A stretch of DNA of 64,000 nucleotides from Elusimicrobia bacterium GWF2_62_30. Its GTDB lineage: Bacteria; Elusimicrobiota; Elusimicrobia; Elusimicrobiales; UBA9959. The stretch's first letter is position 1; the number at the start of each line of letters is the position of its first letter. This document shows positions 55,944-61,809 of the stretch, piece after piece. Under the pieces are notes generated by a model, which was not told where the DNA came from, searched no databases, and worked only from the letters and a program-made list of their open reading frames with translations. Location of the stretch: NCBI GenBank assembly GCA_001799995.1, contig MGUK01000080.1:1-64000 (forward strand), read 5' to 3'. The translations under genes and the position numbers were made by a program.

Positions 55944-56079
55944 CCGCCCCTGCCGCCCGGGCCGGGTATGCAAAACGCGCTAGGCCACACCGTGGCCGTC
56001 GCTCATCCTCCTCCCTCGCCGCTACGCAAGGCTCGGTCGTCGGAAGGTTTTGCCTACCCGGCCCGGGCGCCAGGGGCGG
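55944..56079 (+). repeat. dispersed structured repeat, copy 1
   Basis: A 136-bp element bounded by 33-bp inverted arms (55944-55976 and 56047-56079) with only two mismatches, ending inward in GCAAAAC/GTTTTGC. The core starts GCGCT and has a perfect GGCCAC-ACC-GTGGCC hairpin, then a pyrimidine-rich stretch and CTCGCCGCTACGCAAGGCTCGG. A second copy is at 61676-61809. No transposase is nearby. The stretch to 56170 holds only this element and the hpt promoter. Confidence 0.8.
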
Positions 56080-56133
56080 GTGGCATACATGACCCTACGC
56101 ATATATATTATTGATAAACGCGCTGGTTAATCA

Positions 56134-56162
56134 TTGGCAAAGGGCGCCAAAAAACCTAGAAT
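56134..56162 (+). promoter_or_regulatory. promoter of the hpt-ftsH-cdaA unit
   Basis: TTGGCA, 17 bases, TAGAAT; the ATG of hpt is 8 nt after the -10 box with no Shine-Dalgarno, so the mRNA should begin at or next to the start codon. Confidence 0.7.
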
Positions 56163-56170
56163 ATAGCTCT

Positions 56171-56728
56171 ATGCACAAGGATTTGGAAGAGATCCTTATC
56201 TCGAAACAGGACCTGGAAGCCAGCGTCGCCAAGCTGGGCGCGCGCATTTCCGCCGACTACGCGGGCCGCTGCGTGACCCTGGTGGGCGTGCTGAAGGGCT
56301 GCGTGCTCTTCATGTCCGACCTGGCCAAGCACATCACTACCGATACCCGGCTGGATTTCATGATGCTCTCTTCCTATGCCGGCGAGCATTCCACCGGCGT
56401 GGTGCGGATCCTGCTGGACCTCAAGGAAAGCATAGAGGACTGCGACGTGCTGATAGTGGAGGATATCGTGGATTCGGGCCTCACTATGAACTACATGCTG
56501 CAGAACCTGAAGACCCGCCGGCCCAGGTCGCTGGAGATCTGCACGCTGCTGGACAAGCCCAGCCGCCGCAAGGCTCCCGTGCCCATAAAGTACACCGGCT
56601 TCACGATAGAGGACAAGTTCGTCGTCGGGTACGGGCTGGACTACAACGGTATCTACCGCAATCTCCCGTACATCGGCGTGCTCAAGAAGTCCGCCGTAGA
56701 AGCACAAGGAAACAACCCATGCCGCTGA
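56171..56728 (+). CDS. hpt: hypoxanthine phosphoribosyltransferase
   Basis: 185 residues. VLIVEDIVDSGLTMNY is the PRPP-binding loop, GVLKGCVLFMSDLAKHI the N-terminal loop and FVVGYGLDYNGIYRNLPYIG the C-terminal purine-binding part. It salvages hypoxanthine and guanine. The ATG at 56171 fits family length; a longer frame from 56111 would cover the promoter. It overlaps ftsH by 10 bp, a pairing (hpt-ftsH) common in bacteria. Confidence 0.95.
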   Translation: MHKDLEEILISKQDLEASVAKLGARISADYAGRCVTLVGVLKGCVLFMSDLAKHITTDTRLDFMMLSSYAGEHSTGVVRILLDLKESIEDCDVLIVEDIVDSGLTMNYMLQNLKTRRPRSLEICTLLDKPSRRKAPVPIKYTGFTIEDKFVVGYGLDYNGIYRNLPYIGVLKKSAVEAQGNNPCR

Positions 56729-58530
56729 AAAAGAATTTCCGACAGTTGCTGTTCTGGATGCTCTCGTTCATGCTCTTCGTCGCTATTTACCAGAGCATGA
56801 AGACCGTGGAGCGCGAGCGCGACATCCCTTATTCCCAGTTCAAGCAGGACCTGCGCGACAAGAAGATCACCAAGGTGGCCGTCCGCCCGGACCTGATCAA
56901 GGGCGAGATGAAGGACGGGGACAAGAAGGTCAATTTCAGGACCGTCCCCATGACGGACGCCAAACTGATAGAGGACATGGAAGCGGCCGGCGTCACCGAT
57001 TTCTCCGCCGAGGCGGACAAGAGCTGGATCGCCAGCCTTGTGCTCAATATCGGCTGGATCCTGCTTTTCGTCTTCCTGTGGTGGTTCCTGTTCATCAAGC
57101 AGGCGCAGATGGGCGGCAAGCAGGCGATGAGCTTCGGCAAGTCCCGGGCCCGCCAGCAGGACCTGAAAAAGAGCAAGACCACTTTCAAGGACGTGGCGGG
57201 CTGCGACGAGACTAAGGACGAACTTAACGACATCGTCGATTATCTGAAGAACCCGAAAAAGTATAAGCTGCTCGGCGGTACCCTGCCCAAGGGCGTGCTG
57301 CTGTACGGCCCTCCCGGCACCGGCAAGACCCTGCTGGCCCGCGCGGTGGCGGGCGAGGCGGGCGTGCCCTTCTTCACCTCCTCCGGTTCCGAGTTTGTGG
57401 AGATGTTCGTGGGCGTGGGCGCCAGCCGCGTGCGCGACCTGTTCGAGCGCGCCAAGAAAAGCGCCCCGGCCATCGTGTTCGTAGACGAGCTGGACGCCGT
57501 GGGGCGTTCGCGCTTCGCCGGCATAGGCGGCGGCCACGACGAGCGCGAGCAGACGCTCAACCAGATCCTGGTGGAGCTGGACGGCTTCGAAGCCAACGAG
57601 GGGATAATCCTCATCGGCGCCACGAACCGGCCCGACGTGCTGGATACGGCGCTGCTGCGGCCCGGGCGTTTCGACCGGCGCATCAACGTGCCCATCCCGG
57701 ACATTAAGGGCCGGCTGGAGATCCTGACCGTGCACTCCCGCAAGATAAAGATGGACGTGTCCGCGGACCTCTCCGTGATAGCCCGCCATACCCCCGGCTT
57801 CGTCGGAGCGGACCTCGCCAATATCGTCAACGAGGCGGCCATCCTCGCCGCCAAGAAAGAGAAAAAGGCCGTGGAAATGAAAGACCTGGAAGAAGCTATA
57901 GAGAAAATGATGGCGGGACCCCAGCGCAGGTCCAGGGTGATCTCCGAGCATGAGAAGAAGGTGGTGGCTTACCACGAGGCCGGCCATACGCTGGTCGCCA
58001 AGTCGCTGCCCGGCTGCGACCCCGTGCACAAGGTTTCCATAATCCCCCGCGGCCCCGCGCTCGGCTACACGCTGCAGCTCCCGGTGGAGGACAAGTACCT
58101 CACGTCCAAGTCGGAGATCCTCAACCGGCTCTGCGTGCTGCTGGGCGGCCGCGCGGCCGAGGAGATGGTCTTCGGCGAGATAACCACCGGCGCGCACGAC
58201 GACCTGGCTAAGGTCTCCAATTACGCGCAGAAGATGGTGCTCGAGTTCGGCATGAGCGAGAGGGTGGGCCCGCTCTCCCTCAAAAAGGACGAGTCGGAGG
58301 TGTTCCTGGGCCGCGATATCGTGCGCTCGGCCGGCCACTCCAACGAGACCGCCCGCATCGTCGACGAGGAGATCCAGCGCATCGTCAGCGAATGTTATGC
58401 CAGGGCCAAAGAGGCCCTCACCAAGAACCGGGCCGGGCTCGACGCCATAGCGGCGCGCCTGATAGAGAACGAGGTCATAGACGCGGCCGAGATAGAGCAG
58501 ATAGTGGTCGCGGCGGCCAAAACGGTCTGA
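56719..58530 (+). CDS. ftsH: ATP-dependent zinc metalloprotease FtsH
   Basis: 603 residues. Two membrane helices (about 8-24 and 103-121) flank a small periplasmic domain. The AAA module has [13 protein letters not shown] (Walker A), [11 protein letters not shown] (Walker B) and [17 protein letters not shown] (second region of homology). The peptidase motif is YHEAGHTLV with a later Asp ligand. It degrades unfolded membrane proteins and regulators. It is shorter at the C-terminus than E. coli FtsH (644). Confidence 0.97.
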
Positions 58531-58543
58531 AGAACGGGGAGAC

Positions 58544-60827: not shown

Positions 60828-60856
60828 ACGCCCGCTCCCTGCGGGCGTTCTTTTTT
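60828..60856 (+). terminator. intrinsic terminator of the deacetylase gene
   Basis: An 8-bp stem ACGCCCGC / GCGGGCGT with loop TCCCT is followed by TCTTTTTT. Confidence 0.9.
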
Positions 60857-60869
60857 GAGGTAAATTGGG

Positions 60870-60875
60870 TACAAT
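60870..60875 (+). promoter_or_regulatory. -10 box next to the glycerophosphodiesterase start
   Basis: TACAAT ends 6 nt before the ATG at 60882 and 14 nt after the terminator T-run. No Shine-Dalgarno; a leaderless mRNA is expected if this box is used. The -35 region is weak. Confidence 0.5.
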
Positions 60876-60881
60876 ACACAA

Positions 60882-61625
60882 ATGGGTGCCATAAAAGTTT
60901 ACGCGCACCGGGGGGGATTGCTGAAGGCCCCGGAGAACACGATAGCCGCTTTCAAAGCGGCCTTTTCCTCGGGCGCGGAGGCCGTGGAGTGCGACATCCG
61001 CCGCACCGGCGACGGCCAGTTCGTGGCCTGCCACGACGCCAACGTGAAAAGGGTGACCGGTCGTTCCTGGCCGGTGTCCGGCGCCAGCTGGGCGCATCTT
61101 AAAACGCTGCGCGTCTTCGGCAAAGAGCCGATGGCCCACCTCGACGACATCCTTAACCTGATGATACTGCGCCCGGGGCGAGATTTTTATTTCGAGATGG
61201 CGCTGGAGAAGCTTTCCGACGCGGCGGACCTGGCCCTGCAGATAAAAAGGGCCGGCGTGCAGCGGCGGGCCTTCCTGCTGGCTTTTTCCACGCATAGCGC
61301 TTTCCTGGATGCCGCCAGGGCGGCGGTGCCGGATATCGGTACGGCGGTGATGCCGCTTTTCCCTTCGGATATCGTAGGGACGGCGGAGCGGGCCGGGGCG
61401 CAAAGGGTCTGCGCTGGCTGGATAGACTGGCCGTTCACCAAGCAGCTGTTCGCGCTGGGCGCGGCGGCGTTCGATTTTAAGGCGCAGGCAGCGCGCGCGG
61501 AGCAGGCCGGCATCGGCGTGTCGGCCGGGGTGGCCAACCACCCGCGCGACGTGCGCTGGCTTTCCTCGCTGGGCGTGTCCGCCATCTGGACCGACGACGT
61601 CCCTATGGCCATGAAGTACCTCTGA
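60882..61625 (+). CDS. glycerophosphodiester phosphodiesterase
   Basis: 247 residues. AHRGGLLKAPENT has the catalytic His and Glu, AVECDIRRTGDGQFVACHD the metal ligands and second catalytic His, both at the expected spacing from the start. It cleaves deacylated phospholipids to glycerol 3-phosphate and an alcohol, which matches the OPA-family transporter elsewhere in the window only loosely. No signal peptide, so it is cytoplasmic (UgpQ-like). Confidence 0.93.
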   Translation: MGAIKVYAHRGGLLKAPENTIAAFKAAFSSGAEAVECDIRRTGDGQFVACHDANVKRVTGRSWPVSGASWAHLKTLRVFGKEPMAHLDDILNLMILRPGRDFYFEMALEKLSDAADLALQIKRAGVQRRAFLLAFSTHSAFLDAARAAVPDIGTAVMPLFPSDIVGTAERAGAQRVCAGWIDWPFTKQLFALGAAAFDFKAQAARAEQAGIGVSAGVANHPRDVRWLSSLGVSAIWTDDVPMAMKYL

Positions 61626-61675
61626 GCCGGCCTCCCCTCCTGTTAAGCGGGTAATATTTCATGGCTCCCAGGCGT

Positions 61676-61809
61676 GCGGTTCCTGCCTTGGGGACCGGAG
61701 CGCAAAACGCGCTCGGCACACCGTGCCTCGCTCTTCCTCCGGCCTCGGCGCTATGCAAGCCTCGGCCTACGGACGGTTTTGCTAACCCGGTCCCCAAGGC
61801 GGGAACCGC
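61676..61809 (+). repeat. dispersed structured repeat, copy 2
   Basis: A 134-bp element. Its outer arms (61676-61698 and 61787-61809) pair over 23 bp with one mismatch but differ in sequence from the arms of copy 1. The inner part matches copy 1: GCAAAACGCGCT, a GGCAC-ACC-GTGCC hairpin (61714-61726; copy 1 has GGCCAC-ACC-GTGGCC), a pyrimidine-rich stretch, CTCGGCGCTATGCAAGCCTCGG and GGTTTTGCTAACCCGG. It lies between the glycerophosphodiesterase gene and the tRNA-Ser terminator. Confidence 0.8.

What the first reader, a model, noticed from the sequence alone, without database searches (positions are those of the whole stretch)
55944..61809. Two dispersed elements with a shared core and covarying, sequence-different stems
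Copies at 55944-56079 and 61676-61809 share the inner sequence (GCAAAACGCGCT, an ACC-loop hairpin, CTCG-CGCTA-GCAAG-CTCGG, GGTTTTGC). Their outer arms differ in sequence between copies, yet each copy is self-complementary over 23-33 bp. The inner hairpin also covaries: GGCCAC-ACC-GTGGCC against GGCAC-ACC-GTGCC. Pairing kept while sequence changes points to selection on RNA or cruciform structure, either a structured RNA family or a non-autonomous mobile element with hairpin ends. Both lie downstream of a plus-strand gene. I recognise no described family.
Basis: seen in the sequence. Interest (0 to 1): 0.75.

Follow-up and report, generated by a model that had tools for sequence, protein, structure and literature searches.

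The report
Dispersed DNA hairpins with drifting, matched arms
A bacterium of the little-studied phylum Elusimicrobiota carries about a hundred copies of a short non-coding DNA hairpin whose outer arms drift in sequence yet stay matched to each other and whose centre can lie in either direction; it looks like a new family of bacterial intergenic repeat shaped at the DNA level rather than by an RNA job.

Summary
The two copies belong to a family with 103 places in this Elusimicrobiota genome. It is in 32 of 32 genomes of the genus and 48 of 59 of the family, but in 13 of 198 sampled across the phylum, all in that family. Each unit (about 125-150 bp) is a conserved three-way-junction core framed by an outer palindrome of about 24-27 bp per arm. 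Covariation is strong: 26 of 38 pairs, 257 doubly changed cells against 65.5 in shuffles.

The evidence favours DNA over RNA. There is no G-U preference (22 GT, 36 AC; tRNA control 16 and 4) and no orientation bias to genes. Between sister species the core is inverted at 5 of 16 scored sites (4 touch contig ends). Stem sites change as fast as flanks, yet 25 of 28 double changes keep pairing, as expected if polymerase template switching matches the arms. Some sites are empty in sister species. No mobilising gene was found. It works like REP/BIME or ERIC-type repeats, with a different architecture. Rfam held no match, and the paper searches listed no description.

The parts
55944..56079 (+). Copy 1 of the element (subfamily A core)
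   Evidence: CM R1 match G000:C80:55949-56076 + 117.3 bits
55944..55969 (+). Copy 1, left arm of the outer palindrome
   Evidence: fold; pairs with 56054-56079
55970..56053 (+). Copy 1, conserved core from GCAAAAC to GTTTTGC (three-way junction)
55983..55997 (+). Copy 1, hairpin 1 (GGCCAC-ACC-GTGGCC)
56020..56031 (+). Copy 1, conserved loop region of hairpin 2 (CGCTACGCAAGG)
56054..56079 (+). Copy 1, right arm of the outer palindrome
61676..61809 (+). Copy 2 of the element (subfamily B core)
   Evidence: CM R1 match G000:C80:61682-61805 + 133.1 bits
61676..61701 (+). Copy 2, left arm of the outer palindrome
   Evidence: fold
61702..61782 (+). Copy 2, conserved core from GCAAAAC to GTTTTGC
61715..61727 (+). 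Copy 2, hairpin 1 (GGCAC-ACC-GTGCC)
61750..61759 (+). Copy 2, conserved loop of hairpin 2 (GCTATGCAAG)
61783..61809 (+). Copy 2, right arm of the outer palindrome

Best explanation
The element is a non-coding, dispersed DNA palindrome of one family of Elusimicrobiota: a conserved core that folds into a three-way junction, framed by arms that are locus-specific in sequence but complementary. Shown: about 103 copies in this genome, intergenic, behind genes, avoiding divergent promoters, often as tight convergent pairs of two different subtypes; strong covariation without an RNA signature; most sites shared by sister species with the arms changed in a compensated way; cores of different subtype or inverted direction at the same site; some sites empty in sister species. 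Inferred: the arms stay matched mainly because DNA synthesis switches template between the inverted arms, rewriting one arm from the other and sometimes inverting the core between them, so the palindrome drifts at the neutral rate without losing its symmetry. Also inferred: the invariant loops of the core are read by a DNA-binding protein or recombinase acting on the folded strand, which explains dispersal and the within-genome likeness of cores. That protein was not found. As a working role I take it to be a REP-like resident of intergenic space that moves rarely and is tolerated where it breaks neither genes nor promoters.
For: 103 distinct places. Covariation beyond all 500 shuffles. GT 22 against AC 36 in A2, and in the inner stems 0 GT and 3 AC of 1,232 cells, against 16 and 4 in tRNA stems (Fisher p 0.002). 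Gene contexts of 63 own copies: 22 convergent, 38 tandem, 3 divergent; 18 of 38 tandem copies co-directional. Tight pairs in G000: 13 plus-minus, 1 plus-plus, gaps of the plus-minus pairs 11-99 bp. Sister species G002/G010: 17 of 21 G002 sites are paired with a G010 site; over 10 sites 25 of 28 double changes keep Watson-Crick pairs against 4.2 doubles expected if independent, at per-site change 0.090 in stems and 0.091 in flanks. Inverted core at 5 of 16 orientation-scored sites, and at one more between G000 and G002/G010 (L054). Same site with different core subtypes and, in one, inverted core: 5 of 14 species at one intergenic region. Core and arm identity are decoupled: 95 pairs of own copies with at least 99% identical cores have 0.41 outer-arm identity, like the less similar pairs, with 0.25 in flanks. 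Sites empty in sister species. Template switching between inverted repeats is reported to homogenise arms and to invert the spacer in yeast (PMC8604942, abstract) and to give multibase compensatory changes (PMC8794818, abstract).
Against: Most compensated pairs between the sister species are isolated: runs of 3, 2 and 2, the other 18 single, so selection with ordinary compensatory mutation is not excluded. Four of the five inversions touch contig ends in G010 (one of these also has an N gap inside the G002 copy), so assembly error is possible. The fifth (L205/L223) has a much changed core and could be a second insertion. The conserved three-way-junction core with invariant loops argues for some selected function. 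No mobilising protein, no general target-site duplication, and no direct evidence of a cruciform or of recombination. An empty site can also mean loss. The tRNA control is small (16 of 21 genes parsed).
Confidence: 0.6

Rival explanations
1. A structured RNA family: the hairpin works in transcripts (3' UTR stabiliser, terminator-like structure or small RNA) and selection on RNA pairing makes the covariation.
For: Strong covariation and invariant loops; copies sit close behind stop codons (23 of 38 tandem copies within 60 nt) and avoid divergent regions. A long hairpin forms in RNA of either strand, so random orientation alone does not exclude a 3'-end role. In transcript direction GT is 17 against AC 12, weakly in the RNA direction but not significant.
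Against: No G-U preference overall while tRNA stems show it; no orientation bias; cores inverted at orthologous sites; no Rfam match at gathering score and none in copy 1 even at E up to 10 except below-gathering matches; stem sites change as fast as flanks.
Confidence: 0.15
2. A REP-type non-autonomous transposon moved in trans by a Y1 (RAYT/TnpA_REP-like) transposase acting on folded single-stranded DNA.
For: Intergenic position, high copy number, hairpin with invariant loops, inverted heterodimers and spacers of 20-100 bp match REP dimers as described in PMC3733652 (passages and section 14 read). Y1 genes occur in 21 of 36 relatives.
Against: No element within the held flanks of 22 of 61 Y1 genes examined, where about four would be expected at the G000 density. 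G003 and G015 have no Y1 match but 51 and 46 element matches. The two Y1 genes of G000 carry their own, unrelated inverted repeats. The unit is three to six times longer than a REP, and its constant part is the centre, not the ends.
Confidence: 0.15
3. A host-selected chromosomal site: the palindrome is kept because a host protein (nucleoid, topology or replication) uses the cruciform or hairpin, and selection, not copying, keeps the arms matched.
For: Present in 32 of 32 genomes of the genus; most G002 sites shared with G010; invariant loops; non-random placement.
Against: Copy number varies from 9 to at least 59 matches per genome in the genus (capped at 59) and sites come and go; stem sites change at the flank rate; 11 of 59 family members have no match.
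Confidence: 0.2

Closest known systems
REP / BIME sequences (GTAG- and CGTC-tagged palindromic repeats)
   Same: High-copy, intergenic, palindromic; singletons and inverted heterodimers with spacers of tens of bases; subfamilies with complementary stem changes (PMC3733652, passages and section 14).
   Different: REPs are 20-40 bp with stems of mostly 6-9 bp and a GTAG or CGTC tag; here the unit is about 125-150 bp with a three-way-junction core, arms of about 24-27 bp and no such tag. PMC3733652 reports frequent G-T pairs in GTAG repeats; here G-T is not favoured.
REPINs (REP doublets forming hairpins)
   Same: Inverted doublets; [quoted passage not shown]
   Different: In REPINs the ends are conserved and the middle varies; here the middle is conserved and the outer arms vary.
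ERIC / RU-1 and other small enterobacterial MITE-like units
   Same: Intergenic repeats of 103-168 bp with MITE-like features (PMC2759123, abstract; that RU-1 is ERIC is recalled).
   Different: No sequence likeness seen: no Rfam family matched the elements at gathering score; restricted to one family of Elusimicrobiota; outer arms locus-specific.
Template switching between short inverted repeats (a mutational process, not an element family)
   Same: Predicts matched arms, multinucleotide changes and spacer inversion (PMC8604942 and PMC8794818, abstracts).
   Different: Those papers treat yeast coding regions and RNA genes; here it would act on a dispersed bacterial repeat.

Membership tests
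REP / BIME | 20-40 bp palindrome | tested here: not met
   Unit of about 125-150 bp
REP / BIME | GTAG or CGTC tag at one end of the stem-loop | tested here: not met
   Position-by-position composition of 57 own copies shows no conserved GTAG or CGTC at the ends
REP / BIME | High-copy intergenic repeat, inverted dimers | tested here: met
   103 places, 13 tight plus-minus pairs; 4 of 103 copies overlap a predicted gene
REP / BIME | Linked RAYT gene flanked by the repeat | tested here: not met
   0 element matches beside 22 of 61 Y1 genes; Y1 genes of G000 have other flanking repeats
MITE (non-autonomous DNA transposon) | Terminal inverted repeats shared with an autonomous relative | tested here: not met
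   Outer arms differ between copies; no recurrent neighbouring gene except syntenic groups. An autonomous relative elsewhere in the genomes was not searched for exhaustively
MITE (non-autonomous DNA transposon) | Target-site duplication of fixed length | tested here: inconclusive
   No excess of direct repeats over swapped flanks in 103 copies; one site (L028) shows a likely 25-bp duplication against an empty site
Structured RNA family | Covarying secondary structure | tested here: met
Structured RNA family | G-U pairs tolerated on the functional strand | tested here: not met
   22 GT, 36 AC against 16 GT, 4 AC in tRNA stems
Structured RNA family | Transcribed as a defined RNA | not testable with these tools
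   No expression data held
Known Rfam families | Match at gathering score | tested here: not met
   Window and 20 loci: only tRNA and RNase P genes reach it

The most novel reading that the evidence does not exclude
The core is a recombining unit that can be inverted within, and replaced inside, locus-specific palindromic frames, and an inverted pair of frames can act as a gene-capture slot. Between a NUDIX gene and dnaE, a plus-minus pair encloses an AAA_14/DUF4143 gene (GC 0.53) in G000 and two unrelated ORFs (GC 0.37) in G010, while G002 has one element and no cargo there.
Probability: 0.15. Interest if true: 0.8.

Novelty: new variant of a known kind. Interest (0 to 1): 0.58.

Why it matters
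Covariation in bacterial intergenic repeats is usually read as proof of a selected RNA or DNA structure. Here a family with about a hundred copies per genome, in a clade with sister species, lets the other reading be tested directly: arms that drift at the neutral rate yet stay matched because DNA synthesis copies one from the other, with the centre inverted as a by-product. If right, it warns against using covariation alone to call new RNA families, and it offers a natural record of template switching in bacteria. It also adds a REP-like repeat with a new architecture to a phylum in which the paper searches made here listed none.

Tried and rejected
Rejected or led nowhere. (1) Known RNA family: no Rfam match at gathering score. 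In copy 1 with E up to 10 only 4 matches far below gathering, driven by the long stem. While reading I thought of the twister-sister ribozyme because of TGCAAG in a loop (recalled); no such match appeared. (2) Integron attC site: the constant and variable parts are the wrong way round (recalled features); dropped. (3) Y1/RAYT partner: no element near 22 of 61 Y1 genes. (4) A gene always beside the copies: blastp clustering of 310 predicted proteins from loci around copies gave only paralogous families and syntenic groups. (5) Arms taken from palindromes already present at the target: no core-less palindrome with the consensus arms in the genome, searched for one exact pattern only, and no palindrome at the PLD-hpt site in 12 relatives printed. 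(6) Target-site duplication: no excess over swapped flanks. (7) Elements on phages, plasmids or viral contigs: none (one exact pattern; one query each). (8) SbcD loss as the reason palindromes persist: only 3 of 59 family genomes exceed the curated cut-off, but 35 of 59 have weaker matches and only 8 of 14 control genomes exceed it, so this is inconclusive. (9) Swapped-arm test without structural alignment: own arms beat swapped arms on average (7.08 against 5.33), 40% above the 95th percentile of swapped pairs; 77 of 103 copies could be anchored.

Corrections made on the way. One search counted 11 sister-species sites, including L193/L224, which is in fact inverted; one search repeats the count on 10 sites without it and is the one cited. 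One search used an alignment fitted to the model in which some arms slid (for example L199/L231); its totals are not used. Alignments A3 and A4 are fitted to the model and lean towards its structure; A2 is not, but its structure was chosen from its own columns. Gene calls come from a simple codon-usage script of mine, not from a gene finder. Subtype names A and B are mine.
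Full report
What was checked. The two copies at 55944-56079 and 61676-61809 are present as described. Both fold far better than shuffled sequence on both strands (plus strand z -6.2 and -8.4, minus strand -6.3 and -6.4). The genome is an Elusimicrobiota metagenome assembly: relatives of the cdaA gene between the two copies come from records named Elusimicrobia, Elusimicrobiota or Elusimicrobiales and from unnamed 'bacterium' bins, with cyanobacteria only as distant matches. 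The window lies on contig C80 of a 2.91 Mb, 99-contig assembly.

How many copies. DNA searches with copy 1 and copy 2 gave 48 and 44 matches in the own genome, falling into two subfamilies, here called A and B. A covariance model (R1: 57 sequences, 126 positions, 38 pairs) gives 109 matches at 103 distinct places. Over the phylum 13 of 198 sampled genomes match, all of the same family, one of them with a single weak match. One exact core pattern found nothing in viral contigs, and a blastn of one copy each found nothing in phages or plasmids.

Anatomy. From outside in: an outer palindrome of about 24-27 bp per arm; the motif AAC ... TAACC; a GCAAAAC/GTTTTGC stem; hairpin 1 with an invariant CACACCG apex; hairpin 2 with a conserved GC-TATGCAAG-type loop. 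In 57 own copies the first 12 or so arm positions are well conserved, the next 12 or so carry a weak consensus, and beyond about 28 there is none. Covariation is beyond doubt: in A2, 26 of 38 pairs have changes on both sides and 257 cells are doubly changed against a shuffled mean of 65.5, 0 of 500 shuffles as high. In 69 own-genome copies the figures are 30 of 38 pairs and 327 against 82.7 (alignment fitted to the model).

DNA rather than RNA. If one strand worked as RNA, G-U should be kept more often than A-C. In A2 the outer stem has 22 GT and 33 AC, and the inner stems 0 GT and 3 AC in 1,232 cells. In A4 it is 30 against 28. Acceptor and T stems of 16 of 21 tRNA genes from the same loci have 16 GT and 4 AC (Fisher p 0.002 against A2 and 0.035 against A4). 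Read in the direction of transcription for 38 tandem copies it is 17 GT against 12 AC, which leans towards RNA but is not significant. Copies in tandem contexts are co-directional with the genes in 18 of 38 cases.

Placement. Of 63 own copies with both neighbours called, 22 lie between convergent genes, 38 between tandem genes and 3 between divergent genes. Of 38 tandem copies 23 lie within 60 nt of the upstream stop codon. Four of 103 copies overlap a predicted gene (own and relative copies). Within 400 bp of each other there are 13 plus-minus neighbours and 1 plus-plus in the own genome, gaps of the plus-minus pairs 11-99 bp, none minus-plus. Of ten such pairs typed, nine join an A-type with a B-type and one joins A with a diverged A. 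REP heterodimers are discussed the same way in PMC3733652, where protection of heterodimers from hairpin cleavage is suggested (section 14 read).

Sister species. G002 and G010 share long stretches at roughly 90-97% identity. I held stretches around all 21 G002 sites and around the G010 sites. Seventeen of 21 G002 sites are paired with a G010 site; the other four were not matched in the stretches held. At ten sites with the same orientation, stem positions change at 0.090 per site and flanks at 0.091. Of 521 pairs, 455 are unchanged, 38 changed on one side and 28 on both, of which 25 keep a Watson-Crick pair; 4.2 double changes would be expected if sites were independent. With the structure taken from G010 it is 27 of 29. 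Purely selective maintenance should slow the stems; they are not slower than flanks. Adjacent compensated changes occur (for example GGGGCC/GGCCCC to GGTACC/GGTACC at L207/L214), but runs are short: one of three and two of two, the other 18 single, so this is support and not proof.

Inverted and exchanged cores. At 16 of the 17 paired sites orientation could be scored: 11 same, 5 inverted (L205/L223; L206/L226 with L230; L210/L222 with L228; L193/L224; L209/L225). Four of the five touch contig ends in G010, and L210 has an N gap inside the element, so assembly error is possible. L205/L223 lies inside contigs in both, but its core has changed much. I infer that contigs breaking at elements may themselves reflect mixed orientations; repeats would do the same. 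Between G000 and G002/G010 one site (L054) is inverted. In named relatives, the region between a response-regulator gene and the next gene holds an element in 5 of 14 species printed, with different core subtypes and, in L127, the opposite direction from L121 although the arms next to the core are nearly the same. Within G000 core likeness says nothing about arm likeness: 95 pairs with at least 99% identical cores have outer-arm identity 0.41, pairs with less similar cores 0.36-0.48, flanks 0.20-0.25. Cores are therefore homogenised or replaced independently of the outer arms.

Movement. At the PLD-hpt site of copy 1, the 12 relatives printed have no element. Five G000 sites lie in places where the aligned sister stretches lack the element; L027, L041 and L028 are clean, L006 and L046 less so. 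L028 shows a likely 25-bp duplication of the target. Over 103 copies there is no excess of flanking direct repeats over swapped flanks, so no general target-site duplication can be claimed, and empty sites may partly be losses.

Looking for the mover. Y1 transposase genes occur in 21 of 36 relatives. I examined the surroundings of 22 of the 61 matches, and none had an element (about four expected at G000 density). G003 and G015 have no Y1 match but many elements. The two Y1 genes of G000 are flanked by other inverted repeats. Clustering of 310 predicted proteins around copies showed no shared mover.

Known or new. It works like REP/BIME, REPIN or ERIC-type repeats but fails defining tests of REPs (size, tag, linked RAYT), and no MITE partner was found. 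Paper searches: Elusimicrobiota with repeat words listed no paper on such an element among the 15 listed of 1,701; no held paper has both Elusimicrobia and 'repetitive extragenic palindromic'; ten listed of 484 were unrelated. Further searches are. These searches are limited to the open library. Papers seen: PMC3733652 passages and section 14; PMC3116915 passages; PMC8266576, PMC2759123, PMC8604942 and PMC8794818 abstract and outline; others as listings.

Verdict. Real, abundant and conserved; a new family with a new architecture within a known kind of bacterial repeat. The most likely reading is DNA-level maintenance by arm-to-arm template switching plus rare dispersal by an unknown mover. 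The boldest open reading is that inverted pairs serve as gene-capture slots, based on one site in three species.

Noticed in passing
L270:1956-3494 (G000), L271:1951-3497 (G010), L202:3218-3349 (G002): Same NUDIX-dnaE region: an inverted pair of elements encloses an AAA_14/DUF4143 gene (spacer GC 0.53) in G000 and two ORFs without Pfam match (spacer GC 0.37) in G010; G002 has one element and no cargo. Flanks are 0.63 GC.
   Followed up: partly
L267:2032-5413 (G053): A plus-minus pair of elements encloses 3.1 kb of GC 0.42 with two ORFs of 330 and 420 aa without Pfam match; left flank GC 0.60.
   Followed up: partly
L046 from about 1630, also L002, L011, L038, L048, L053; related in L093: A second palindromic repeat family of about 135 bp lies near element copies at six G000 loci.
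   Followed up: partly
L120 about 10260-10450; also L098, L095, L059, L239/L268: A third large hairpin repeat sits at the same response-regulator intergenic site in L098 and L120 and recurs in other loci.
   Followed up: partly
L229, L221, L231 (G010); L017, L015 (G000): Short inserts inside the core between hairpins 1 and 2 or in hairpin 2; three G010 copies share an insert of about 30 bp, two G000 copies carry other short inserts.
   Followed up: no
L172:1676-2539 and L173:1851-2646 (G000): The two Y1 transposase genes of G000 are bounded by their own repeats: a perfect 17-bp inverted repeat, and GGGGTCTGACCCC-type arrays.
   Followed up: partly
G010 contigs C22, C33, C39, C42, C73, C97, C103; G000 C6, C44: Contig ends often fall inside elements, as expected for repeats or for mixed core orientations.
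   Followed up: no
family f1 genomes: Only 3 of 59 genomes exceed the cut-off of the SbcD model, 35 of 59 have some weaker or stronger match; G000 best is 34.2 bits against 77.65.
   Followed up: partly
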